A stretch of DNA of 64,000 nucleotides from Desulfovibrio psychrotolerans (lineage in GTDB: Bacteria > Desulfobacterota > Desulfovibrionia > Desulfovibrionales > Desulfovibrionaceae): contig NZ_BLVP01000008.1 in the NCBI RefSeq assembly GCF_013340305.1, positions 483,408 to 547,407 of the forward strand, written 5' to 3'. The first letter of the stretch is position 1. Each line of letters begins with the position of its first letter. A model generated the notes under the pieces. That model ran no database searches and was not told where the DNA came from. It worked only from the letters and a program-made list of their open reading frames with translations. Below, in pieces: positions 41,298 through 55,403 of this stretch. The translations under genes were made by a program, and so were the position numbers.

Positions 41298-41384
41298 GCC
41301 CGGGTGGTGGAATTGGTAGACACAAGAGACTTAAAATCTCTCGGCCTTCGGGCTGTACGGGTTCAAGTCCCGTCCTGGGTACCA
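41298..41384 (+). tRNA. tRNA-Leu(TAA)
   Basis: Class II tRNA, 87 nt including an encoded CCA. Acceptor GCCCGGG pairs with CCTGGGT. Anticodon stem AGAGA/TCTCT encloses the loop CTTAAAA with anticodon TAA. The variable arm is CGGCCTTCGGGCTG-like and the T arm contains GGTTCAAGTCC. Close to E. coli tRNA-Leu(UAA). It stands at the left edge of the CRISPR region. Confidence 0.97.
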
Positions 41385-41541: not shown

Positions 41542-44500
41542 GGTTCAATCCCCGCGGGTGCGGGGAACACATCTGCGGACGTGAGAGAGCACGCTGGTAT
41601 CGCGGATCATCCCCGCGGGTGCGGGGAACACCGGGGGTTTGCCAGCTTCAGGCCCATGTACGCCGGATCATCCCCGCGGGTGCGGGGAACACTGACACAG
41701 CAAGACGGAGCCGGGACCATTAAACGGATCATCCCCGCGGGTGCGGGGAACACTGCTCAATGCGTACAGGCAACATGCGGCCCCACGGATCATCCCCGCG
41801 GGTGCGGGGAACACACAGATTGGTAAATTTCTGGAGCATGTTCGGACGGATCATCCCCGCGGGTGCGGGGAACACCTCGCTCATCTGTTTTTTTGCAGAC
41901 TCCAACTCGGATCATCCCCGCGGGTGCGGGGAACACTTTTGTGCTCCGTTTACGGCAACAACAGCGGCCGGATCATCCCCGCGGGTGCGGGGAACACAAA
42001 GGACCATGCCAGCGCTTCCACGCCATCATCGGATCATCCCCGCGGGTGCGGGGAACACCTGTATAGCCCGTCATGCCCCCCTTGCTGTTCCGGATCATCC
42101 CCGCGGGTGCGGGGAACACATATAACTGCAAACACTCAGAGCATAAGTGTTCGGATCATCCCCGCGGGTGCGGGGAACACTCCATGCAATCGGCCATTGC
42201 CTTGTAATACCGCGGATCATCCCCGCGGGTGCGGGGAACACAAGCGCGCACACTGTCGTTCCCTGTTGACACGCGGATCATCCCCGCGGGTGCGGGGAAC
42301 ACATCGAAAAACGTGCTGACCGTCCATCTGTGCCCGGATCATCCCCGCGGGTGCGGGGAACACAGTCTCCGAAAAACCGCATTGTGTGCCGCAACCGGAT
42401 CATCCCCGCGGGTGCGGGGAACACAGCTGGATGACCTGCTGCATAAGGGCGGATGGCGGATCATCCCCGCGGGTGCGGGGAACACCCATTATACGATTGT
42501 ATGGCCAGCAACAGCCGCGGATCATCCCCGCGGGTGCGGGGAACACCATTGAGTACCCGGTTTTTAAAGAGCATTTTGCGGATCATCCCCGCGGGTGCGG
42601 GGAACACTCCATGCAATCGGCCATTGCCTTGTAATACCGCGGATCATCCCCGCGGGTGCGGGGAACACTTGCCTTCCGCCGTGCGGTATCTGGTGCGACC
42701 CGGATCATCCCCGCGGGTGCGGGGAACACATACGATACTTATGTTTTGGTCAATTATCGGACGGATCATCCCCGCGGGTGCGGGGAACACGTGGAGTTGG
42801 ACTAGATCAATGGCGGAGAGTTCGGATCATCCCCGCGGGTGCGGGGAACACCCGCCTTATCGATGGCTTTACTCACATCCATGCGGATCATCCCCGCGGG
42901 TGCGGGGAACACCTGATTCTGCAACCCCGATTCCTGAACAAATACGGATCATCCCCGCGGGTGCGGGGAACACATATTTGGTAACGCCAATAAGCTCGGC
43001 AACATCGGATCATCCCCGCGGGTGCGGGGAACACTGAAGCGTATCGCGTGATAACCGGGGCATGTTCGGATCATCCCCGCGGGTGCGGGGAACACTATAC
43101 CCCCGCGCCGAGGCTGCGGAAAAACAACGGATCATCCCCGCGGGTGCGGGGAACACATACCTCGCTAAAATGGAGCTTATTCCACCTGCGGATCATCCCC
43201 GCGGGTGCGGGGAACACCCGTGCCCGGCGTCGGAGATGTGGGCAAGGGCCGGATCATCCCCGCGGGTGCGGGGAACACTTTTTTGCTTTTGCCTTCAACC
43301 CCTTATCTACCGGATCATCCCCGCGGGTGCGGGGAACACTACCGAGATCATGTATTGGCCGTTTGGATCATCGGATCATCCCCGCGGGTGCGGGGAACAC
43401 GTCCATACAATACCGTCTGACGAGGTCATAGCCGGATCATCCCCGCGGGTGCGGGGAACACTTTGTGGCGACGGGCCAACGCTGGAGGAAGACCGGATCA
43501 TCCCCGCGGGTGCGGGGAACACTTCTGGCACATCTGTATCCCGATGTCCCTAACCGGATCATCCCCGCGGGTGCGGGGAACACGCTGGATTGACGAAGTT
43601 GACGGGCAGTATGTTCGGATCATCCCCGCGGGTGCGGGGAACACACAACCGCAGCGAGACAGGAAACCAAGAGGCGCGGATCATCCCCGCGGGTGCGGGG
43701 AACACAAAACTGCGCTTGCTAAGTATGGCGTGAGTAGCGGATCATCCCCGCGGGTGCGGGGAACACTACTACGCAGACGCGAGAGGAGAGCATTGCGACG
43801 GATCATCCCCGCGGGTGCGGGGAACACCCTTTTCCCATATGGGGCAAGGCTCATCGATCCGGATCATCCCCGCGGGTGCGGGGAACACGGTAACGCCTTC
43901 GTCTCTGGACGCTGGTGCAACGGATCATCCCCGCGGGTGCGGGGAACACCAACGCGCGTTCTTCCTCGGTTTGGGCAAGCTCGGATCATCCCCGCGGGTG
44001 CGGGGAACACAGGGTCAGTTGTCATTAGCATTGCCATTACTACGGATCATCCCCGCGGGTGCGGGGAACACAAAAGGCTTCTGACTCCTGACCCTTGAGC
44101 CTGCGGATCATCCCCGCGGGTGCGGGGAACACACGGGAGCGGTGGCGCTGGTGGTGATTGTGGGCGGATCATCCCCGCGGGTGCGGGGAACACAATGGAC
44201 ACGGCCCGGAGGCAAGCTGAATTTGCGGATCATCCCCGCGGGTGCGGGGAACACATCGATGAAGCTCATCGTGCAAGTTCTGATTACGGATCATCCCCGC
44301 GGGTGCGGGGAACACATGAGCCGGAAGTCAATAAGTTTCAGATTTCTCGGATCATCCCCGCGGGTGCGGGGAACACTCTACCGCCGCAAAAGTGAAGTAT
44401 AACTAACGCGGATCATCCCCGCGGGTGCGGGGAACACAGGGTCTTCTTGTGCGCACCGAGACTCTTTGTCGGATCATCCCCGCGGGTGCGGGGAACACCG

Positions 44501-45351
44501 GCCAATGTGACTCAGGAATTTCTGGATGCCCGGATCATCCCCGCGGGTGCGGGGAACACTGTGGATCCTCGGTGGCCCATACAAATTCGATCGGATCATC
44601 CCCGCGGGTGCGGGGAACACGCCACCAACACCATCGGTCGCAAGTCCGAGGCGGATCATCCCCGCGGGTGCGGGGAACACCACGGCCCTTCGGTACGGTC
44701 GCGGGTGTACACCGGATCATCCCCGCGGGTGCGGGGAACACAGCTTTCAAGGGAGGGGGCGGCGGATTTTTTGCGGATCATCCCCGCGGGTGCGGGGAAC
44801 ACCTCATTTTTGGATTTTATACCAAATACGGCCTCGGATCATCCCCGCGGGTGCGGGGAACACTTCAGCGCCTGATATTTGGTGGTCTTGCTCTGCGGAT
44901 CATCCCCGCGGGTGCGGGGAACACATTTCGCTGTTTACATCCCCATTGATTCCGTTCGGATCATCCCCGCGGGTGCGGGGAACACGAGTAGATGAAATCA
45001 TCTCATATGCACGGGCACGGATCATCCCCGCGGGTGCGGGGAACACCTACGTACCAAGGACCACTCCCCATCTCTGTACGGATCATCCCCGCGGGTGCGG
45101 GGAACACACGACTGGCACACGCCGGAGGCTGTTGGGGCGCGGATCATCCCCGCGGGTGCGGGGAACACGCTATCTCCCGCTCCTTCAGATCAACGTAGTC
45201 CGGATCATCCCCGCGGGTGCGGGGAACACACTCCCGCAGCCGGGCAAGCAGAGTGGTAAACCGGATCATCCCCGCGGGTGCGGGGAACACAGGGTCTCTC
45301 AACCATGGCTCACCACAACCCGCGGATCATCCCCGCGGGTGCGGGGAACAC
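41542..45351 (-). CRISPR. Type I-E CRISPR array, 63 repeats and 62 spacers
   Basis: 29-bp repeat, minus-strand form GTGTTCCCCGCACCCG then CGGGGATGATCCG, with stem CCCCGC/GCGGGG. I counted repeat ends at 61-bp steps from 41570 to 45351: 63 repeats. All spacers are 32 nt except 44621-44651 (31 nt). All repeats look identical except the first in plus coordinates (41542-41570), whose outer end is degenerate (GGTTCAAT for CGGATCAT). That marks the trailer, so the leader lies at the high end beside cas2 and the array is transcribed on minus. One spacer occurs twice (42181-42212 and 42608-42639). Confidence 0.99.
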
Positions 45352-45446: not shown

Positions 45447-46634
<1,188 letters not shown>

Positions 46635-46638
<4 letters not shown>

Positions 46639-47303
46639 AGCCTGCGCACCAGCAGCAGACCGCAGCCAAAGCCTTTAGCCGGCCCCACGCCTTGGAACAG
46701 CACGCGCAACAGCTTTTGCGGGTCTTCTACCTGCGCCGTGCCCTGCATATCCATGATGCCCAGACTGATAGTGTGGGAGCGACCGGCGTGCGGGTTGCGC
46801 TTGATAAACCGCTCCACACGGCAGCCGTCCACCTGCACGCAGCCGGGATCGATGCTCAGGCCCAGTTCCTGCTGACGCTTCAGCAGCCATTCCATACCGG
46901 CTGACTGCGCAAGCCCGGCACGGACGGGAAGGTCGGAAGCGTCTATGCCCGGCTGCCGCTCCTGCAGGCGGATGCGTGCATCCTGCATCACGTCAAATCG
47001 GCGTTGCTTGCCATCTATATTGCGTTTTACCACCGCGTTGGCGCGCAGGGAAAAGGCAATGCCCTCTCCCTGCTGCAACTTGGGGGCGTAGGGCTTGATT
47101 TGCGTTGTCCACCATCCTTCCGCGTCATGCGGCTGGCGGTGAGAAACGGTGAGGAATGTGTGGGGATCATCCTGCTCGCGGAACAGGAAATCCCGCTTTC
47201 TGTCCGGCCTGTCGGCGAACAGATTCCAGAGAAGCCTGTGCGTGTCGTACAAGCCCGATCTGGCCGCATGCCGGGGATCAAGCACAAGTTTACTTATCCA
47301 CAT
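46635..47303 (-). CDS. cas6e: Cas6e, pre-crRNA endonuclease
   Basis: Cuts the repeat RNA at the base of its stem and stays bound to the 3' hairpin of the crRNA. About 222 residues. Signature RSGLYDTHRLLWNLF near the N-terminus includes the likely catalytic His, and the C-terminal Gly-rich loop is QGVGPAKGFGCGLLLV. ATG 47303 is chosen for its GGAGGTATCTT site; it overlaps cas5e by 14 bases. Confidence 0.95.
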
Positions 47304-48156
47304 AAGATACCTCCGCATCGGCAGGCATTTCAGCGTGGTGTGCGCTGTCTGCTACGCGGGAAACCAGCAGCACACGGACAGGGCGTTTTGCAAACTGCCT
47401 GCGCCCGTGGTGCAGGGGCATGTCGCGGTGCATCTCCATGCCTCCTGCCGCGTCAGCCAGATCGCCCAGATCAGCCAGATCATCCAGATCGCCCAGATCA
47501 GCAGGCAGGTCTGGCAGGCCCTCTGCATCCGGCAGGCCATCCGATTCCAGCAGCTCATCTGCATCCATATGTATGCGATACGGGTCGGAATGGCGAAGAG
47601 TTGCAGAAACAGGTTCATACACGAGGTACGCGGCAAGCGCCGCCTGCGGGGTTGCATGCTCACCCACCTGCGGGGCAAGCGGCAGGGCAGGCGGGCACGA
47701 TTTGCGCCCGAGCCACAGCGTCCAGTGAGGGGTTTTTAGCGCCTGCGCCAGTTGCTGCAGCGTATGCGGGGCCGAATCGCTCCGTTGCCACAGGCAGACC
47801 GTGAACAGGGCATCCATAAGGTATTCCCGGCGGGAGAGGATGGTGTTCGGCTCCGTGAGCAGCAGTTCATCCCGGCGGCAGAAGAGCTGGCGCTTACCTC
47901 TGGTTCCCGGTGCCTGAATGGTGTGATAATCCAGCAGCACCTTGCCGGGGGAGTGTTCCCGAACGGCCATGCCATACGCTTTATGCAATTCTGCCAGCCG
48001 TGCTTCCTCGTCCCGTCTGATGCCCAGAGCGGCGGCCAGCAGCCCGATTACGGCAGAGCGCGTGGGCATGGTGGCCGTGGGGCGTATTGCCCCCACTGCC
48101 ACTGTGCCGTATGCCTGCAAAGGGCCGTAGAGTTGAAAGGTCAGATACTGTGCCAT
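47290..48156 (-). CDS. cas5e: Cas5e with a low-complexity insertion
   Basis: Cascade subunit that binds the 5' handle of the crRNA. 288 residues from ATG 48156; the N-terminus YLTFQLYGPLQAYGTVAVG and the motif PTATMPTRSAVIGLLAAALG are typical. It is 50-60 residues longer than many Cas5e proteins because of an Asp/Leu-rich insertion in its second half (LPADLGDLDDLADLGDLAD) encoded by a tandem repeat. The conserved C-terminus (RPVRVLLVSRVADS) follows the insertion in frame, so the gene looks intact. Confidence 0.93.
   Translation of the reverse strand: MAQYLTFQLYGPLQAYGTVAVGAIRPTATMPTRSAVIGLLAAALGIRRDEEARLAELHKAYGMAVREHSPGKVLLDYHTIQAPGTRGKRQLFCRRDELLLTEPNTILSRREYLMDALFTVCLWQRSDSAPHTLQQLAQALKTPHWTLWLGRKSCPPALPLAPQVGEHATPQAALAAYLVYEPVSATLRHSDPYRIHMDADELLESDGLPDAEGLPDLPADLGDLDDLADLGDLADAAGGMEMHRDMPLHHGRRQFAKRPVRVLLVSRVADSAHHAEMPADAEVSYVDK
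47455..47530. repeat. 9-bp tandem repeat inside cas5e
   Basis: CAGATCGCC/CAGATCAGC-type units encoding Asp-Leu-Ala/Gly triplets. All changes keep the reading frame. Confidence 0.82.
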
Positions 48157-48160
48157 GGCT

Positions 48161-49291
48161 TTATCCCACCATAAACGCCGCAAGGTCCTTAAGGCTGCCG
48201 CTGCCGGTGAGAATGTTCAGTTCTGCGCACTCCGTTTTCTGGCCGTATGCCTTGTTCATGTGTGCACGGGTGTCTGTCAGGCGCGTAATGGCATCCTGCA
48301 GGACATCATCCTTGGAGTTTACACCGGTCAGATAGGCCACGGAAAGGTTGCGGGGCTGCTCGTTGCCGCGTTCCGCCAGAATGTATGAGGCATAGGCGTG
48401 GGAACCGAAGCTGTTCTGCTTGCCCGTGGGGCTTACCTGCGCCACGGCCTGCAGCAGGGCGGTGAGTGCCCGGTTGGTCAGTTCCGCATCGTCCTGCAGG
48501 TTCTGCTGCAGCAGGTCACGGTCTATGCACAGGTACAGGTAGAAGACGCCCGCGCCGAACTCCGATACTCCCATGTGGCCCGCGCCGCTGTCGTCGCGGT
48601 TCAGGTCGTCCACCGCCGTGAAAAAGTCGTCTGCCACGGTCACGGCATGCACGGTCATGGCATGGGCCACCTGCACAGCCGCATCCATATTGTAATCCTT
48701 TTCAGCCGCCAGCATGCGCCCGAACATGGCGATATCGACCGCCTTTATGTTGGTGCGCAACAAGTTTACCTGTTTTTCTTCCGGTGCCTTGCGGTTTTGG
48801 CGGCAGGCTTCCACCTGCGCGGAAATGGCGGCTATTTCTTCCTGTGAAAAATGGGCGAGCTGCTCTATCTCCAGAGATTCCAGAAGCTTTCTGCGTGAGT
48901 CATCGGTATCGACGTCCTTTTTGGGGTCGTATGCAGACTTGTTCTTGCCGAACACACCGGCAATGGTGCGGGCAATGGCAACGGCTTCCTTTTCCTCCAG
49001 CATGGCGTGGCCGCTTGCGGCTTTTCCTGCCAGCACATCCTGCAAGGTGCAGCCTTTTGTCAGTGCAGTGAATATATGCCGTCCCATCTCCTTGGTGCGA
49101 ACACCCATATGTTCCGAACCGAGGTTCTGGAAGATGTCAGACGTGCGCCACGCCCGCTTGAGGCATTGGGAAGAGACGCGCAGACGGGTGGTGTTGCCCA
49201 TGACAACCCGTTTGGGGCTGCCGAGGTCGTCGCGGTTCAGGTTAGAAGCGGGGTAGCTGGTAAGCACATGCAACTGTATGAACTTGCTCAT
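48161..49291 (-). CDS. cas7e: Cas7e (Cse4/CasC), Cascade backbone
   Basis: RAMP-fold protein that forms the six-subunit filament along the crRNA. 376 residues. Motifs: FIQLHVLTSYPASNLNRDDLGSPK, MGNTTRLRVSSQCLKRAWR, KAVDIAMFGRMLA, and the C-terminal GSHAYASYILAERG. It overlaps cse2 by 4 bases and ends 4 bases before cas5e. Confidence 0.97.
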   Translation of the reverse strand: MSKFIQLHVLTSYPASNLNRDDLGSPKRVVMGNTTRLRVSSQCLKRAWRTSDIFQNLGSEHMGVRTKEMGRHIFTALTKGCTLQDVLAGKAASGHAMLEEKEAVAIARTIAGVFGKNKSAYDPKKDVDTDDSRRKLLESLEIEQLAHFSQEEIAAISAQVEACRQNRKAPEEKQVNLLRTNIKAVDIAMFGRMLAAEKDYNMDAAVQVAHAMTVHAVTVADDFFTAVDDLNRDDSGAGHMGVSEFGAGVFYLYLCIDRDLLQQNLQDDAELTNRALTALLQAVAQVSPTGKQNSFGSHAYASYILAERGNEQPRNLSVAYLTGVNSKDDVLQDAITRLTDTRAHMNKAYGQKTECAELNILTGSGSLKDLAAFMVG

Positions 49292-49830
49292 TTCTTATCT
49301 CCTTTTGCGGGGCGTTGTTCAGGGGCAACGTAATAGGCAAGGGCCCAACGTTTGCGGGTATCTTCCGTCCACCAGAAGCCGCTTTCCGTCAGGCTGGTCA
49401 GATTGACCGTATCATCCATAAAGCGCACCAACCGGATACATGCGGTGTACAGTTCATCCCGGTCAGTAATGGCCAGCAGCCGTTGCATGCGCAGATCAAC
49501 CATGCTTCTGCCGCCCGTTCCGGGCTTTTCCGCCTGCATGGCGGCCAGTGCTTCCGGGATGGTGCGCTTATCCAGTTTGCACACATGTGCCAGTATGCCC
49601 ACAGGCAGAGCCAAGCTTTCCATTTCATCTTCCACAAGACGAATGCCGCTTTCTCGCAGCAGGCCGGGCAGAAAATTGCGCTGGTATGCGCGCGAAACGA
49701 GCACATCAAGCGGACTGCGGGCCCGGCGTAGCTCCGCCCGCATGCCCCGGTTCTGCTTAAGCCCTTCCCACCATGTGTGCAGAAAGCCTTTGAACGTGTC
49801 GTTTTTAAGAAATGCTCCGAATGCACTCAC
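49288..49830 (-). CDS. cse2: Cse2 (CasB), Cascade small subunit
   Basis: Helical subunit, present as a dimer, that stabilises the R-loop. 180 residues. Features: TWWEGLKQNRGMRAELRRA and SPLDVLVSRAYQRNFLP near the N-terminus, and FMDDTVNLTSL near the C-terminus. It overlaps both neighbours by 4 bases. Confidence 0.93.
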   Translation of the reverse strand: MSAFGAFLKNDTFKGFLHTWWEGLKQNRGMRAELRRARSPLDVLVSRAYQRNFLPGLLRESGIRLVEDEMESLALPVGILAHVCKLDKRTIPEALAAMQAEKPGTGGRSMVDLRMQRLLAITDRDELYTACIRLVRFMDDTVNLTSLTESGFWWTEDTRKRWALAYYVAPEQRPAKGDKK

Positions 49831-51431
49831 GCGTTGCCTCCCTTGTTGCCGGTTCCCAATTCCTTATTGCAGAGGCCCCGGTTGAACCGGCGCATCTGGT
49901 TAAGTGCTCCGTAAATGCGGGGTGCCTCTACGCTGCTGAAGGTTCCGCTTTCTGCCTGTTCCGCGAATAGGACCTCTGCGGTGTTCAGTATGGTTGTTGC
50001 CCATTCCTTGCGCAGGGTAGGGGCAAGCGCGTCCTGCTCTACCGGGTCGCCCTTCTGCAAAGGCATCACGAATCGGGCCACCAATGCATGGAACACCGAT
50101 TCCGTGCGGGACCAGAACGCCATGGAAGCGGCGGACAACAGTGTTTGGTCCGTCTTGGCGTTGCGGCCGCCATCTGCAAACAAGGCATCCTTGACGGCCT
50201 TGAGCATATTGGATCGAATCCTGTCCGCCACGGAGAGCCACAAGCCTACCTCTTCCCGCAGGATTGCCGCTTCGGCATCTTCCAGCGGGTAAAAAGGCAT
50301 TTCGCCCTCGCACCATTGCATGGGTTCCATGTTGTTCATGTCATAGCCGAACACGCTTATCCGCATGGTCGCCTTCTCCGTCAGATCGCGGACCTGCTGA
50401 ATGCACAGGGCGGGCAACAGCTTTTTCTTGCTGTCTGCCGGCAAGCCGTAGAGCAGGCCCAACCACTGGTTGTAGGCGGTGCCATCCGCGCTGCCTTTGA
50501 CAGACAGAGGCGGTTTGTCCTGCCCGGGGTCGTGGTAGGGCGTGAGGGGGTGACGCCACGCCCCTTCGTAGTTGTTGCCGTAGTTTTTGACCCCCATCTG
50601 CCGGATGACGGTTGTGGTGGCAGTGCCGCAGATATCGCAGCCGATCGGCTGGACGGATGTTTCACTGTGCAGCCGGATACGGCGCGGCATGCCCCAGAAG
50701 GCGTGCAGGGGGTGCCCGTGTTCCGGCAAGCATGCTGTGCCCTTTTCTTTGCTTATGCGTGTGGGCACGGTCCACGGAAGCACGCGGCCCAGTCCGTCCG
50801 GTGTGGTGGGCATGCGCCATTCATCGGAACTGGCTACCAGCACGTTGTTCCACACGGTTTCCCAAAGGGTATTGCCCAGCACCAGCGTGGAAAGAGGCCC
50901 GCCGCCGCGGAGAGAGGTGCGGTAACCTACCCCGCCGGTCGGAGCGAAAGCCTGCATGGTGAACAGGGCCATGGCGGCACAGGTGGGGCACAGGCTTTCT
51001 ATGCGTCCCCGTTTGACGAAGAAGTCCGTATCCTTTTTAAGGGCGTTCTCGCCGGGGGAGTCTATGAGCAGGGCAGCGATGCCGACGACGTTTTCTTCTT
51101 CCGGCGTCAGGGTGAGGTCCTGCATGAAGAGGGGGCGTTCCCCCAGCAGGAAAAAGTGGGGAAAGAACGGCTCCATGGCCGCGCGCAAGGTTTCGGGTTG
51201 CGGCGGTGTTTTCCGCCATGCCTGTTTATCCTTATTGCTGTGGGGCGGGATCATGGTCTGCACGCAGCCCACAAGGAATTCCAGCATGGCCCCTCCAAAG
51301 TCCGGTCGCGGCACATCCAGCGCCACCGGAGCAGGGGTTGCTGTCAGTTCCCACGGGGCAATGCGTGTGCGCCCCCCATCAGACAGGATAACGGGCAGCC
51401 ATTGGTCAGACAGGAGATTGAACGTCTTCAT
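49827..51431 (-). CDS. cse1: Cse1 (CasA/Cas8e), Cascade large subunit
   Basis: Recognises the PAM and recruits Cas3. 534 residues. Motifs: NLLSDQWLPVILSDG at the N-terminus, PALDVPRPDFGGAMLEFLVG-type LDVPRPDFGGAMLEFLVG, the zinc-like pair CPTCAAMALF and GCDICGTATTT, TGGVGYRTSLRGGGPLSTL, and a C-terminal four-helix bundle. It is the first gene of the cse1-cas2 operon. The promoter at 51788-51815 lies about 350 bases upstream. Confidence 0.97.
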   Translation of the reverse strand: MKTFNLLSDQWLPVILSDGGRTRIAPWELTATPAPVALDVPRPDFGGAMLEFLVGCVQTMIPPHSNKDKQAWRKTPPQPETLRAAMEPFFPHFFLLGERPLFMQDLTLTPEEENVVGIAALLIDSPGENALKKDTDFFVKRGRIESLCPTCAAMALFTMQAFAPTGGVGYRTSLRGGGPLSTLVLGNTLWETVWNNVLVASSDEWRMPTTPDGLGRVLPWTVPTRISKEKGTACLPEHGHPLHAFWGMPRRIRLHSETSVQPIGCDICGTATTTVIRQMGVKNYGNNYEGAWRHPLTPYHDPGQDKPPLSVKGSADGTAYNQWLGLLYGLPADSKKKLLPALCIQQVRDLTEKATMRISVFGYDMNNMEPMQWCEGEMPFYPLEDAEAAILREEVGLWLSVADRIRSNMLKAVKDALFADGGRNAKTDQTLLSAASMAFWSRTESVFHALVARFVMPLQKGDPVEQDALAPTLRKEWATTILNTAEVLFAEQAESGTFSSVEAPRIYGALNQMRRFNRGLCNKELGTGNKGGNA

Positions 51432-51483
51432 GGCATACTCCGATACATGGTTTTCGATTTAGGACGGTACAAGAAAACCCGCT

Positions 51484-51516
51484 GACTAGCCAGATTGAAA
51501 TGCTCTCTGGCTAGTC
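51484..51516 (-). promoter_or_regulatory. Hairpin before cse1, possible attenuator
   Basis: GACTAGCCAG (minus 51516-51507) pairs perfectly with CTGGCTAGTC (51493-51484). On minus it is followed after 6 bases by TTTTCTT, so it could end or slow transcripts coming from the 31-codon ORF. It lies 52 bases before the cse1 start. Confidence 0.6.
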
Positions 51517-51530
51517 AACTCAGAGCGAAA

Positions 51531-51626
51531 TCAGTTCGGGATACGTAATGGAATGATGCAGATCACAATGCCATCCTCATCAAGCATGATGAGAATAATC
51601 GTAATCCGCGGGCGGCGACGCGTCAT
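51531..51626 (-). CDS. Candidate 31-residue protein upstream of cse1 (possible CreT-like toxin or leader peptide)
   Basis: ATG at 51626 with GAGGAGG 5 bases upstream, 31 codons, TGA at 51531. The predicted product begins MTRRRPRITIILIMLDEDG and ends IVICIIPLRIPN: basic start, then two short hydrophobic runs. The Shine-Dalgarno sits in the loop of a 6-bp hairpin (TCAACC-GAGGA-GGTTGA). It is the first ORF after the promoter that the degenerate CRISPR guide matches. No homologue is recognised and expression is inferred only. It may be a toxin, a leader peptide coupled to the hairpin at 51484, or a chance ORF. Confidence 0.5.
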   Translation of the reverse strand: MTRRRPRITIILIMLDEDGIVICIIPLRIPN

Positions 51627-51657
51627 GTCAACCTCCTCGGTTGAGGGTTATTGACTG

Positions 51658-51759
51658 CGCGTAGCCTTGTGGGGTAAAGTCAAAATCCTACTAATGACGT
51701 GTACCCGCAAGGTTACGCGGCTGCCCCTTAGGCCCACCTTGTGGTCTGGGGGCATTTTT
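51658..51759 (+). ncRNA. Candidate structured RNA with an intrinsic terminator, between HigA gene and cse1
   Basis: CGCGTAGCCTTGTGGG (51658-51673) pairs over 16 bp with CCCGCAAGGTTACGCG (51704-51719), using two G-U pairs that exist only on the plus strand. A second hairpin, TGCCCC (51722-51727) with GGGGCA (51749-51754), is followed by TTTTTA as in a terminator. No clear plus-strand promoter is visible. On minus the same sequence would be the 5' leader of the cas mRNA, where 14 of the 16 pairs survive. Confidence 0.5.
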
Positions 51760-51787
51760 ATTGGGCAGGGTCCATGTTTCTGGGTAT

Positions 51788-51836
51788 AGAATAACCCTTG
51801 CAGAGTGTTTGTCAATTACTTCTTCATTACTAACTT
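51788..51836 (-). promoter_or_regulatory. cas operon promoter overlapped by a protospacer of the degenerate CRISPR unit
   Basis: Promoter on minus: TTGACA (51815-51810), 16 bases, TATTCT (51793-51788), reading toward the 31-codon ORF and cse1. The protospacer on minus is 51833-51802 with PAM AAG at 51836-51834. Guide positions 1-5, 7-11 and 13-17 match; 6, 12 and 18 do not; the PAM-distal part matches at only 6 of 15. The -35 box falls at protospacer positions 19-24, so bound Cascade would block RNA polymerase. Confidence 0.85.
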
Positions 51837-51886
51837 ATCTTTTTTATTAATGCGAATATTTTTCTATTTCTTTTAGGTGGCTATGA

Positions 51887-51976
51887 AAAGAAATCCCCGC
51901 TTGCGCGGGGAACGGAAGATGATTCCGACATACTTGTTCATAACTAACGGATCATCCCCGCATGTGCAGGGAACAT
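51887..51976 (-). CRISPR. creA: CreA-like degenerate CRISPR unit: two pseudo-repeats and one 32-nt guide
   Basis: Upstream pseudo-repeat (minus 51976-51948) matches the array repeat at 25 of 29 positions; its last 15 bases, including the 8-nt handle ATGATCCG, are identical, and the stem CCCTGC/GCGGGG holds through a G-U pair present only on minus. The guide is 51947-51916 (32 nt). The downstream pseudo-repeat (51915-51887) keeps the stem CCCCGC-GCAA-GCGGGG but its 3' end has become ATTTCTTT, which could act as a terminator. Repeat-to-repeat distance is exactly 61 bp as in the main array. The guide matches the cas promoter 54 bases downstream. The name is by analogy with haloarchaeal CreA. Confidence 0.85.
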
Positions 51977-52051: not shown

Positions 52052-52354
52052 CTACACTTGGGCCGTTTTAATGGGTTCCACGGCCTTCCAGTCCGTATTG
52101 GTGTGAGCCACCTCCCAGAGGGTGTACCCCTGCTGCATGTTGAGCCAGAGTTCCGGTGAGGTGTTCAGAGCGCGGGACAGGCGCAACGCAATGTCCGGTG
52201 TGATGGAGGCGCGTTCGTTCACAATAGCGGAAAGCGTTTTGCGGGAAATGCCCAAACGCTGCGCCAGAGCGGTGATGGTGAGGCCCAGCGGCTCCATGTG
52301 CATCCGGTGCAGGATTCCGCCGGGATGCGTGGGTTTTCTGGTGCGGGTACGCAT
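52052..52354 (-). CDS. higA: HigA-family antitoxin
   Basis: XRE-type helix-turn-helix antitoxin, 100 residues. HPGGILHRMHMEPLGLTITA and LAQRLGISRKTLSAIVNERA form the HigA signature, followed by ITPDIALRLSRALNTSPELW. It binds DNA and neutralises the toxin encoded 10 bases upstream. Together they form a HigBA module inserted between cas3 and cse1. Its stop lies 22 bases from the putative promoter of the degenerate CRISPR unit. Confidence 0.93.
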   Translation of the reverse strand: MRTRTRKPTHPGGILHRMHMEPLGLTITALAQRLGISRKTLSAIVNERASITPDIALRLSRALNTSPELWLNMQQGYTLWEVAHTNTDWKAVEPIKTAQV

Positions 52355-52364
52355 GGCGTTCCTC

Positions 52365-52643
52365 CTAATGGTAGTCCTGATAGTTTACAATATGGGCATC
52401 GCCGTTTTCAAACCGGAAGGTCAGTCGCCAATTGCCGGAGACTTTTACTGACCAGTGGCCCTCACGTTTTCCTTTCAGTGGGTGAAGGGCAGAACCGGGG
52501 TAGTTCATGTCTCCGATCTCTCGAGCGTTGTCCAGGCGGTCCAGAATATCCAGCAGCTTGCGGACGTGCTTTTGCTGTACGCCTTTGGTAATTCCGTCGA
52601 AGAACAGGTCTTCAAGTCCGCTGTGTGCGAAGCTCCGTATCAT
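52365..52643 (-). CDS. higB: HigB/RelE-family toxin
   Basis: mRNA interferase of the RelE superfamily, 92 residues from ATG 52643. Start MIRSFAHSGLEDLFFDG, LRKLLD-type HVRKLLDILDRLDNA, and the C-terminal core GHWSVKVSGNWRLTFRFENGDAHIVNYQDYH, which contains the catalytic surface of HigB proteins. The longer frame from 52679 would start inside the promoter. Toxin-first order is typical of higBA. Confidence 0.93.
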   Translation of the reverse strand: MIRSFAHSGLEDLFFDGITKGVQQKHVRKLLDILDRLDNAREIGDMNYPGSALHPLKGKREGHWSVKVSGNWRLTFRFENGDAHIVNYQDYH

Positions 52644-52649
52644 GGAGTG

Positions 52650-52715: not shown

Positions 52716-55403
52716 TCAGTATTCAGGATTGATAATAGTTAGGCCTGTGCTGTCCGTATACTCCACCTGTTGTTCCGCCCATGCTATCCAGCCCTCTCCA
52801 ACCTGCCGCAGAACCAGCGGCACGCACCACTTGCCCTTGTCCGGCATGCGCTCCAAGAGCGCGGCAAGCTGAACGGTCACGTCGGGCGGGAGCGTGGACG
52901 GCGTGACCTTGTGCAGGCCTACCGAGACTTCAGACATCCGACATGCAGCGGCCATACCGGGGGCTTCCGCCCAAAGATGCAGGCGGGTGCCATCCCAGCG
53001 CAGCAAGCGTAGTTGAACGGTCTCCTCCCCCAGTCGGGTGAGCACCTTCTCGTCTGTTTCCCAGCCTCTCCCGACAGCCCCGATGGAATAACCGGCTTCC
53101 AGCTTCAAGGCATTATACCGGGCCATATCACGTTTCCCCATGCGTGTGGGGAGGTGCTTCTCATCGGCTTTCAGCAGTGCCTGCGGCGCAAAGGCCGAGT
53201 CGTCATACGTCGATTCCACCAGTCTGCGTGCGTCATCGGGGAGAGAGAGGTGCTGTGTCTCTTCCAGCAATCTGGCTGTACGCCAGAGCGGGGCCTGCAC
53301 GGGATAGACAAACTGGGCCTTGCCCAGCACTGAGGCATACCAGTCGCTTGTGGCGTTTGTCTGTGCCTGCGGAGCCAAGACACGCATGCGGGGGGATTCC
53401 AGTCCGGCAGGCCGGGAACGCTTGTGGCGGTGACAGCGGCCACCGCGCTGAATGAGCAATTCCATGGGGGCAAGGTCGGATGCCAGAAGATCAAAATCCA
53501 GATCAAGGCTTTGCTCAACAACCTGTGTGGCTATCAGTATTTTGCCGCGCCTGTCTTCCGGCGTGCTCTCTTTGCCGAACAGGGCCATCACCCGTTCTTC
53601 AATGGCTTGGCGGTCTGCCATGGCGAACCGGGCATGGAAGAGAATGATGTCTTCTTCCGGGACGCCATATTGCGTACGCAGGTGCTGATACGCTTCTCCC
53701 GCCTGATCCACCGTGTTGCGTATCCAGCAGGTGCAACCGCCAAAAGTGCGGGTTTCTATGAGCGCGTTATAGAGGGCGTTTTCGTCTGTGGTCATCTCTA
53801 CACGGATTATTGCATGCCGGGTGGCCGGGATATCTTGCTCCCTGGTGCCCTGCCGGTCCACTGCCGTGGCCAGAGGAAAAAAGCCGGAATGCAGGGATGG
53901 GGGTGGATATCCCGCTCCTTCACAGAACGCGGCGGCAAGATTGGCGCGCATGCTCCGGGTGAGCGTGGCGGAAAGAAGAATGGCACTGCCCCCGAGGGCT
54001 GCATGAAAACGGAGGAGGGTCTGGAGCAATGATCCGGTGTATTCGTCGTAGGCATGCACCTCGTCTACCACCAGCACGTTGCGGGCCAGTCCGAGCAGGC
54101 GCAGGCACTGGTGCCGGGCCGGGAGCACGGCCATGAGGGCCTGATCTATTGTGCCCACGCCGCACTGGGACAGCAGTGCCTTTTTTCGGGAATCGGCAAG
54201 CCATGTGGCACAGTAGGAGCGCCCATCGGTCTGCGGATCAATGGATGGAGATGTGCCGGCATCGGGAACGCTGGCCATGAACAGTTCGGAAAGATTGCGG
54301 GCGCCGTGCGCCAGCATCAGGGATATGGGGGCGGGCTGGCCGCTGCCTTCATCTTCTGCAAACAGTGCCCGGTAGGACTGGGCCAGCCGTGCATACATGC
54401 CGTTGGCCGTGGCCATGGTGGGCAGGCCGATGTAGAATCCTTCCGCCTCGCCCATGTGCATGAGCCCGTGACAGCAGAGCAGAGCTGCTTCCGTTTTGCC
54501 GCCCCCGGTCATGTCTTCAAATATATGCAGCTGGGGACCGGCGTGTTGCAGGGCATAGTGCAGGGCATGGGTTTGCAGCGGGCTGGGCCGGGCGTCTGCA
54601 TGAAGATGGGGAAGCAGCCGGGTAAAGTCGCGCTCCGGTTGGGCGGGCGACGCCAGCAAGCCGGATTCACATACGGCGCGCTGCGCATGGGGCAGTGCCA
54701 CTTCTTCCCAGTATGTTTTTAGCGGCATCGGTTCTGTGCAGAAAGGAAACCAGCGCGTGTTGGAACCAAGCCAGTCTGCTGCCACCATGAGTCCTGCATG
54801 GAGCCACGAGAGAGCGCAGAAGCTCTGCTCATCTTCCGGAATCGCCATGGGTTCCATCAGCAAACCGACAACCTCGGAGGCAAAGCTGGCTGCGTGTTCT
54901 GCCGAGCGGCGGAAGTGCCGTATGGAGCCGGACTCTTCCTGCGGAGAGCCGTGATGCCCGAATGTTGCGGCAATGAGGGGGTGCATGGTGTGCGCCGCTT
55001 CTTCGGAAAAGGCGGAGTGATGGTTCTCCAGTTTCTGGCGGACAACACTCATGTAGAGCGATTGCCCCAGCGCGGTATGGTGCGTGTTGCCGCCAAGGCC
55101 GGAAGGCGGGGCGTTTGTAAGCATGGCCCGAGCCGCTGCCTGCTGCTCCTGAAAGAGCGACGCAAATTTGCCTATGTCGTGCAGGGCTGCGAGTGTGCGA
55201 AGGAGTGCGCGGATGCTGGTTGCAGGTAACCCGGAGAGGTGCGTGATGCGCCGCAGCAGGAGAGGGGAGTGGTAAAGGAGTCTGTCGTAGACGGCTGCAA
55301 CATCCAACAGGTGATAGGGCAGCAGGTGGATGAACGGGGCAGTGTTCTTGTCAAATTTTGCCCAGTAGCCGAAATAGGGCTGTTCCGTGTTGCATGGGGG
55401 CAT
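52716..55403 (-). CDS. cas3: Cas3, type I-E helicase-nuclease
   Basis: Recruited by Cascade to nick, unwind and degrade target DNA. 895 residues. N-terminal HD nuclease: HLLPYHLLDVAAVY, LAALHDIGKFASLF, HHTALG and ATFGHHGSPQ. Superfamily 2 helicase: motif I DMTGGGKTEAALL, II VVDEVHAYDEYTG, III LLSATLTRS, V QVVEQSLDLDFD, VI QRGGRCHRHKR. A C-terminal domain follows. Full length and intact. It is separated from cse1 by 1.28 kb that hold higBA, the degenerate CRISPR unit and the cas promoter, whereas in many I-E loci cas3 lies directly beside cse1. Confidence 0.97.
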   Translation of the reverse strand: MPPCNTEQPYFGYWAKFDKNTAPFIHLLPYHLLDVAAVYDRLLYHSPLLLRRITHLSGLPATSIRALLRTLAALHDIGKFASLFQEQQAAARAMLTNAPPSGLGGNTHHTALGQSLYMSVVRQKLENHHSAFSEEAAHTMHPLIAATFGHHGSPQEESGSIRHFRRSAEHAASFASEVVGLLMEPMAIPEDEQSFCALSWLHAGLMVAADWLGSNTRWFPFCTEPMPLKTYWEEVALPHAQRAVCESGLLASPAQPERDFTRLLPHLHADARPSPLQTHALHYALQHAGPQLHIFEDMTGGGKTEAALLCCHGLMHMGEAEGFYIGLPTMATANGMYARLAQSYRALFAEDEGSGQPAPISLMLAHGARNLSELFMASVPDAGTSPSIDPQTDGRSYCATWLADSRKKALLSQCGVGTIDQALMAVLPARHQCLRLLGLARNVLVVDEVHAYDEYTGSLLQTLLRFHAALGGSAILLSATLTRSMRANLAAAFCEGAGYPPPSLHSGFFPLATAVDRQGTREQDIPATRHAIIRVEMTTDENALYNALIETRTFGGCTCWIRNTVDQAGEAYQHLRTQYGVPEEDIILFHARFAMADRQAIEERVMALFGKESTPEDRRGKILIATQVVEQSLDLDFDLLASDLAPMELLIQRGGRCHRHKRSRPAGLESPRMRVLAPQAQTNATSDWYASVLGKAQFVYPVQAPLWRTARLLEETQHLSLPDDARRLVESTYDDSAFAPQALLKADEKHLPTRMGKRDMARYNALKLEAGYSIGAVGRGWETDEKVLTRLGEETVQLRLLRWDGTRLHLWAEAPGMAAACRMSEVSVGLHKVTPSTLPPDVTVQLAALLERMPDKGKWCVPLVLRQVGEGWIAWAEQQVEYTDSTGLTIINPEY

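What the first reader, a model, noticed from the sequence alone, without database searches (positions are those of the whole stretch)
51788..51976. A degenerate CRISPR unit inside the cas locus carries a guide aimed at the cas operon's own promoter
Seen: the 32-nt guide (minus 51947-51916) and the site at 51833-51802 agree at positions 1-5, 7-11 and 13-17. The only mismatches in the first 17 are at 6 and 12, and 18 also differs; these are the every-sixth positions that Cascade flips out and does not read. An AAG sequence, the type I-E PAM, sits in the right place. The PAM-distal half matches poorly (6 of 15), which in type I systems permits binding without Cas3 cutting. The protospacer covers the -35 box of a TTGACA-N16-TATTCT promoter facing cse1. 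Known: CreA in haloarchaeal type I-B loci is a crRNA-like RNA with degenerate repeats that steers Cascade to a promoter by partial pairing. Inference: this is a type I-E equivalent, giving autorepression and possibly addiction to Cascade. Fifteen matches in phase over such a short distance are very unlikely by chance.
Basis: partly seen in the sequence, partly recalled or inferred. Interest (0 to 1): 0.97.

Follow-up and report, generated by a model that had tools for sequence, protein, structure and literature searches.

The report
CRISPR mini-array silences its own operon
A decayed one-spacer CRISPR unit makes a guide RNA that should park the bacterium's CRISPR complex on the promoter of its own cas genes (a known kind of self-control), and here that promoter also drives a previously unnamed small-peptide gene in a highly folded RNA, which may be a toxin that CRISPR keeps silent.

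Summary
In a Desulfovibrionaceae type I-E locus, a two-repeat degenerate unit (51887-51976, minus) carries a guide matching all 15 readable seed positions (1-5, 7-11, 13-17) of an AAG-flanked site over the -35 box of the promoter at 51815-51788. No array spacer exceeds 9/15 there; the match is unique in the 3.79-Mb genome. Relatives settle it: about 35 of 109 Cse1 loci carry such a pair. Guide sequences differ between loci while each target tracks its own guide; mismatches concentrate at positions 6, 12 and 18. Scrambled handles give no such pairs, scrambled PAMs almost none. This is CreR, already described for types I-B, I-E and V-A (Liu 2023, seen only through reviews), so the central idea is not new. 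It recurs across Desulfovibrionales with CreR; unrelated small ORFs fill the same place in many proteobacteria. Most likely Cascade represses both this peptide gene and the cas operon; whether the peptide is a CRISPR-guarding toxin is untested.

The parts
51948..51976 (-). psiR1: degenerate CRISPR repeat ATGTTCCCTGCACATGCGGGGATGATCCG, hairpin kept, 5' handle ATGATCCG intact
   Evidence: 4 differences from the array repeat; folds as the repeat hairpin, -12.1 kcal/mol; the only solitary repeat in the genome
51916..51947 (-). 32-nt guide (psiS / CreR spacer)
   Evidence: 15/15 readable seed matches to 51833-51802; not found in viral contigs (first 26 nt)
51887..51915 (-). psiR2: degenerate second repeat, handle lost, hairpin followed by TTTCTTTT, terminator-like
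51802..51833 (-). target protospacer of the guide; the -35 hexamer is at protospacer positions 19-24
51834..51836 (-). PAM AAG of the target
   Evidence: AAG enrichment over scrambled PAMs across relatives
51788..51815 (-). sigma-70-type promoter TTGACA-N16-TATTCT, the regulated promoter
   Evidence: 10/12 matches; shuffle p 0.02
51432..51781 (-). structured leader RNA between the predicted transcription start and cse1, with a long middle hairpin (51658-51719)
   Evidence: fold z = -5.8; 11 of 11 Desulfovibrionales sORF-type leaders z = -4.5 to -12.2
51531..51626 (-). 31-codon ORF MTRRRPRITIILIMLDEDGIVICIIPLRIPN with Shine-Dalgarno GAGGAGG at 51638-51632
   Evidence: homologues in L131, L214, L216 (z 6.5, 6.7, 4.5); codon-position bias over homologous pairs
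51483..51517 (-). stem-loop after the small ORF (12-14 bp), weak T-run after it
   Evidence: a stem-loop sits at the same place in most relatives
49827..51431 (-). cse1 (first cas gene downstream of the regulated promoter)
   Evidence: PF09481, E 3e-101
45447..49830 (-). cse2, cas7, cas5, cas6e, cas1, cas2
   Evidence: Pfam matches
41542..45351 (-). main CRISPR array, repeat GTGTTCCCCGCACCCGCGGGGATGATCCG, 62 spacers (61 of 32 nt)
52052..52646 (-). higB toxin (52365-52646) and higA antitoxin (52052-52354) between cas3 and the CreR unit, with a promoter-like site of their own at 52679-52650
   Evidence: PF05015 E 3e-19, PF01381 E 4e-13
52716..55403 (-). cas3
   Evidence: PF18019, PF22590

Best explanation
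The unit at 51887-51976 is a CreR/CreA-type mini-CRISPR. Its transcript, cut by Cas6e after the intact handle of psiR1 and ended at psiR2, yields a crRNA-like RNA that Cascade uses to bind the AAG-flanked site over the -35 box of the promoter at 51815-51788. Seed-only pairing holds Cascade there without licensing Cas3, so the promoter is blocked rather than cut. The blocked transcript begins with a strongly folded leader, encodes a conserved hydrophobic peptide of about 30 residues, passes a stem-loop and continues into cse1 and the other cas genes. When Cascade is scarce, occupied by other crRNAs or inhibited, the promoter opens: Cas proteins are replenished and the small peptide/RNA is made. 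Shown by sequence: the unit, the match, co-evolution in relatives, the structured leader, the translated small ORF. Inferred: processing, repression, read-through from leader into cse1. Guess: the peptide or its RNA is toxic and thereby guards the CRISPR system.
For: Match and uniqueness. Family-wide co-variation: 35 nonredundant guide/target pairs in 109 loci; matches per guide position 1-18 = 35,34,33,35,35,10,35,34,26,32,28,11,32,30,23,24,24,10. With selection symmetric over positions 1-17: 25 pairs, mismatches 17 at position 6 and 14 at 12; five handle shuffles give 0, other PAMs 0-3. E. coli Cascade binds with AAG plus as few as 5 seed bases while interference needs extensive pairing, and every sixth base is flipped out (PMC5904413). 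psiR2 terminator and intact handle. Leader and ORF; codon positions 1/2/3 carry 50/23/83 substitutions over five pairs, p 3e-8. No promoter-like site lies between the stem-loop and cse1. Precedent for a promoter in a creTA intergenic region feeding downstream cas genes: H. hispanica, deletion cuts cas8 through cas2 by 72-93% (PMC9458426).
Against: No RNA, binding or expression data. The stem-loop before cse1 could end the transcript, leaving cse1 to another promoter that consensus scanning misses. The promoter of the CreR unit itself is weak in this window (7.5/12, shuffle p 0.31), though strong in L007, L217 and L229. The AAG PAM was not checked against phage protospacers of the array: no phage match of use. 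The reports on type I-E CreR were read only through reviews.
Confidence: 0.78

Rival explanations
1. Plain CreR: the only point is autorepression of the cas operon; the folded leader and small ORF are a regulatory 5' leader (attenuator or leader peptide) or incidental.
For: CreR is established for type I-E (reviews). Several gamma/betaproteobacterial loci with the same guide/target pairs have no obvious ORF between target and cse1 (L151, L143, L203, L209, L153). No promoter-like site just before cse1.
Against: The peptide is conserved at residue level and lies well before the stem-loop, so classical attenuation by a stalled ribosome does not fit. Small ORFs of unrelated families recur at this place with CreR: 16 of 32 CreR loci against 5 of 38 without, p 0.0014.
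Confidence: 0.35
2. A CRISPR-guarding toxin-antitoxin of the CreTA/CrePA kind: Cascade with the CreA-like RNA silences a toxic small RNA or peptide (51531-51626 and its folded RNA); control of cas genes is secondary. The toxin may act as a hydrophobic peptide, or as an RNA that traps a rare tRNA.
For: Same anatomy as CreTA (mini-CRISPR, targeted promoter, strong Shine-Dalgarno, mini-ORF, stem-loop; PMC8501985). ORF and CreR unit are lost together in relatives; L226/L135 keep only a headless ORF. Rare AT-rich codons crowd the last five codons (13 against 7.2 expected, p 0.0015, post hoc), e.g. ATA-ATA in L007 and L132, TTA-TTA-TTA in L008. In L183/L204 hicBA, in L227 a RelE-like ORF, sits downstream of the target.
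Against: Toxicity untested; no match to any toxin family. In this window the ORF's codon use is not significantly rare (p 0.10). CreT RNAs act through codons, whereas here the amino acids are conserved. Joint loss is also what one deletion would give.
Confidence: 0.4
3. An ordinary decayed CRISPR array or spacer whose likeness to the promoter is accidental or non-functional.
For: Repeats are degenerate and there is a single spacer.
Against: 15/15 readable positions plus AAG; the same design with other sequences in dozens of loci and no signal with scrambled handles; guide absent from viral contigs.
Confidence: 0.03

Closest known systems
CreR (cas-regulating RNAs; Liu et al. 2023, Cell Host Microbe 31:1481, known here through PMC13131331, PMC12737573, PMC12948488)
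   Same: Mini-CRISPR in the cas locus, crRNA-like guide with limited complementarity to the cas promoter, type I-E effector
   Different: Here the targeted promoter heads a strongly folded leader with a conserved ~30-aa ORF and stem-loop before cse1; whether published CreR loci include such leaders could not be checked
CreTA (haloarchaeal type I-B, Acinetobacter I-F; PMC8501985, PMC9458426, PMC10097628)
   Same: Two divergent degenerate repeats with retained 5' handle, partial match to a promoter, Shine-Dalgarno + mini-ORF + stem-loop, position inside the cas locus
   Different: CreT acts as RNA through tandem rare codons near the start; here a ~30-aa peptide with conserved residues and rare codons, if any, near the end; toxicity unknown
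CrePA (KilA-N toxin repressed by CreA; review PMC12737573)
   Same: Cascade-repressed protein-coding gene
   Different: No KilA-N domain; peptide of 31 residues
Small hydrophobic type I toxins (Ibs, Ldr, TisB; from general knowledge)
   Same: Short hydrophobic peptide in a highly folded mRNA with strong Shine-Dalgarno
   Different: No sequence match; control by Cascade, not by an antisense RNA

Membership tests
CreR | Degenerate mini-CRISPR beside the cas genes, with usable crRNA 5' handle | tested here: met
CreR | Guide partially complementary, next to a proper PAM, to a promoter upstream of cas genes | tested here: met
   co-variation in relatives
CreR | The targeted promoter drives the cas operon | tested here: inconclusive
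   Co-directional, no other promoter-like site before cse1, but 350 nt and a stem-loop intervene
CreR | Repression by Cascade, relieved by abundant crRNAs or anti-CRISPRs | not testable with these tools
   needs reporter assays
CreTA | Two divergent psi-repeats, no leader, PAM-flanked partial match to the creT promoter | tested here: met
   definition in PMC8501985
CreTA | Small RNA with strong translation start, mini-ORF and stem-loop | tested here: met
CreTA | Tandem rare codons in the mini-ORF | tested here: inconclusive
   This window: CCA-TTA near the end, overall p 0.10; several relatives have ATA-ATA, TTA-TTA-TTA or TCA-TCA
CreTA | Toxic when Cascade is lost | not testable with these tools
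   none
CrePA | KilA-N domain toxin under CreA control | tested here: not met
   No Pfam or NCBIfam match for the 31-aa peptide
Canonical CRISPR array | Near-identical repeats and foreign-derived spacer | tested here: not met
   psiR1 4/29 changes, psiR2 handle lost; guide not in viral contigs

The most novel reading that the evidence does not exclude
Type I-E CRISPR systems of Desulfovibrionales, and with unrelated peptides those of many gamma- and betaproteobacteria, hold a small-peptide gene at the head of the cas operon silenced by their own Cascade through a CreA-like RNA: a new class of CRISPR-guarding toxin, made of a folded mRNA and a hydrophobic peptide, released together with new Cas proteins when Cascade fails or is inhibited.
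Probability: 0.38. Interest if true: 0.82.

Novelty: new variant of a known kind. Interest (0 to 1): 0.62.

Why it matters
RNA-guided self-control of cas genes is known, but here one Cascade-controlled promoter joins Cas supply to a conserved, unnamed peptide gene in a folded RNA, across an order of bacteria and with unrelated small ORFs elsewhere. If the peptide is toxic, type I-E loci carry a widespread guard against loss or inhibition of CRISPR; if not, it is an undescribed accessory of the cas operon. Either way it is directly testable, and the set of guide/target pairs gives an evolutionary record of which Cascade contacts matter for repression without cutting.

Tried and rejected
Chance match: rejected. 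A second solitary repeat or second target in the genome: none. Guide also controlling cas3 or higBA: best other match in the window is 9/15 with AAG. Rfam: nothing credible. Plasmid and phage collections hold no copy of the intergenic region or unit (phage hits are repeat-like or unrelated). Phage protospacers of the array to derive its PAM: none useful. Naming the peptide by Pfam or NCBIfam: none. Structure prediction of a 31-residue peptide: not run, low information expected.

Full report
THE OBSERVATION. The base-by-base claims hold. On the minus strand, psiR1 (51976-51948) keeps the repeat hairpin and the handle ATGATCCG, the guide follows (51947-51916), then psiR2 (51915-51887), whose hairpin runs into TTTCTTTT and scores as an intrinsic terminator. 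The target 51833-51802 with AAG at 51836-51834 matches at positions 1-5, 7-11 and 13-17, mismatches at 6, 12 and 18, and then matches 6 of 15. The promoter TTGACA-N16-TATTCT (51815-51788) puts its -35 at protospacer positions 19-24. With real spacers as controls, none of the 61 full-length spacers of the adjoining array exceeds 9 of 15 with an AAG PAM in the same interval; shuffled guides reach at most 12 in 3,000. In the 3.79-Mb genome the pattern is found only at the guide and the target, and there is no other solitary repeat.

THE DECISIVE TEST: RELATIVES. The genus has no other Cse1-bearing genome among those held, so I took Cse1 loci from the family, order, phylum and the named genome collection. 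Searching upstream of cse1 for any handle-led guide and any AAG-led partial copy gave 35 nonredundant pairs in 109 loci. The guides differ from locus to locus, but each matches its own local target. Matches by guide position 1-18 are 35, 34, 33, 35, 35, 10, 35, 34, 26, 32, 28, 11, 32, 30, 23, 24, 24, 10: positions 6, 12 and 18 are not read. With a selection rule symmetric over positions 1-17, 25 pairs in 24 loci remain, with 17 mismatches at position 6 and 14 at position 12; five sets of shuffled handles give none, and eight scrambled PAMs give 0 to 3. A few of the weaker pairs (for example L170) may be chance. E. coli Cascade binds in vivo with AAG and as few as five seed bases, does not read every sixth base, and needs extensive pairing for interference (PMC5904413), which fits binding without cutting.

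NOT A NEW PRINCIPLE. Cas-regulating RNAs (CreR) that mediate autorepression of types I-B, I-E and V-A by partial complementarity to cas promoters are published (Liu et al. 2023; seen here only in reviews PMC13131331, PMC12737573, PMC12948488).

WHAT WAS MISSED. The targeted promoter does not abut cse1. Between the predicted transcription start (about 51781) and cse1 (51431) lies RNA that folds far better than its shuffles (z -5.8; -6.7), with a long middle hairpin (51658-51719), the Shine-Dalgarno GAGGAGG, a 31-codon ORF (51626-51531, MTRRRPRITIILIMLDEDGIVICIIPLRIPN) and a stem-loop (51483-51517). The same order recurs in Desulfovibrionales loci that have the CreR unit: target 356-413 nt before cse1, leader z -4.5 to -12.2 in 11 of 11 sORF-type leaders, a stem-loop after the ORF, and, in most, peptides with a basic start and two hydrophobic stretches around a polar turn. 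The window's peptide aligns with those of L131 and L214 far above shuffles (z 6.5 and 6.7). Over five independent homologous pairs (four of them, the window/L131 pair) substitutions fall 50/23/83 on codon positions 1/2/3 (p 3e-8), so the ORFs are translated and constrained. No Pfam or NCBIfam family matches.

BEYOND THIS CLADE. In gamma- and betaproteobacterial loci with the same kind of guide/target pair, other small ORFs lie between target and cse1: a TM-like peptide in L183, L204 and L172, another in L188 and L208, a Trp-rich one in L157, L169 and L178, and more. A Shine-Dalgarno-led ORF of at least 24 codons is present in 16 of 32 loci with a pair and, leaving out repeats of the same loci (L131, L132, L134), in 5 of 38 without (Fisher p 0.0014; expectation by shuffling about 3.6 and 4). 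In L183 and L204, HicB and HicA genes lie there; in L227 a RelE/YafQ-like ORF (sub-threshold, E 0.02). Most of these other leaders are not unusually folded, so the folded RNA is special to Desulfovibrionales. Several Desulfovibrionales loci without a detectable CreR unit (L004, L009, L213, L219, L222, L224, L225) have cas3 close before cse1 and no intact ORF; L226/L135 keep only a headless remnant (read by eye).

MECHANISM. I favour a double output: Cascade with the CreR RNA blocks one promoter that feeds the small peptide/RNA first and the cas genes after it. For read-through to cas: same direction, no other promoter-like site before cse1, and a precedent in H. hispanica, where the creTA intergenic region drives the downstream cas genes (PMC9458426). 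For a toxin-like first product: the CreTA anatomy (PMC8501985), co-loss with CreR, and the placing of known TA toxins at this spot in other loci. A hint of the tRNA-trapping strategy of CreT is the crowding of rare AT-rich codons in the last five codons (13 against 7.2, p 0.0015), but that codon set was chosen after looking, and in this window the codon usage as a whole is not significantly rare (p 0.10). Conserved amino acids argue that the peptide itself matters. Toxicity, processing and repression are all untested here.

VERDICT. Observation confirmed; core interpretation correct but already known as CreR; the open and more interesting part is the conserved peptide gene in a folded leader under Cascade control, which I rate a new variant of a known kind, with the caveat that the original CreR and CreTA papers could not be read in full.

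Noticed in passing
52052-52646 (window); L132:4488-6229; L135 and L226 upstream of cse1: The cas3-cse1 gap collects toxin-antitoxin genes: higBA here, AbiEi/AbiEii in L132, a RelE/ParE-like pair by eye in L135/L226, hicBA in L183/L204 after the target.
   Followed up: partly
51531-51626 and the same ORF in L006, L007, L008, L132, L133, L214, L216, L220: Rare AT-rich codons (TTA, ATA, TCA, GTA) sit near the 3' end of these small ORFs, often in tandem; the cause is unclear.
   Followed up: partly
41298-41384: The only tRNA gene in the window, tRNA-Leu(TAA), lies just beyond the end of the CRISPR array; its anticodon reads TTA, the rare codon near the end of the small ORF. Possibly only an integration site.
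   Followed up: no
guide/target pairs of L007, L149, L153, L178, L179: Besides 6, 12 and 18, guide position 9 is often mismatched, commonly as guide C against protospacer T.
   Followed up: no
L006, L218 upstream of cse1: Two copies of the targeted sequence in tandem upstream of cse1, each with AAG (L006) or AAA (L218, by eye).
   Followed up: no
42152-42241 and 42579-42668: The same spacer occurs twice in the array, seven units apart.
   Followed up: no
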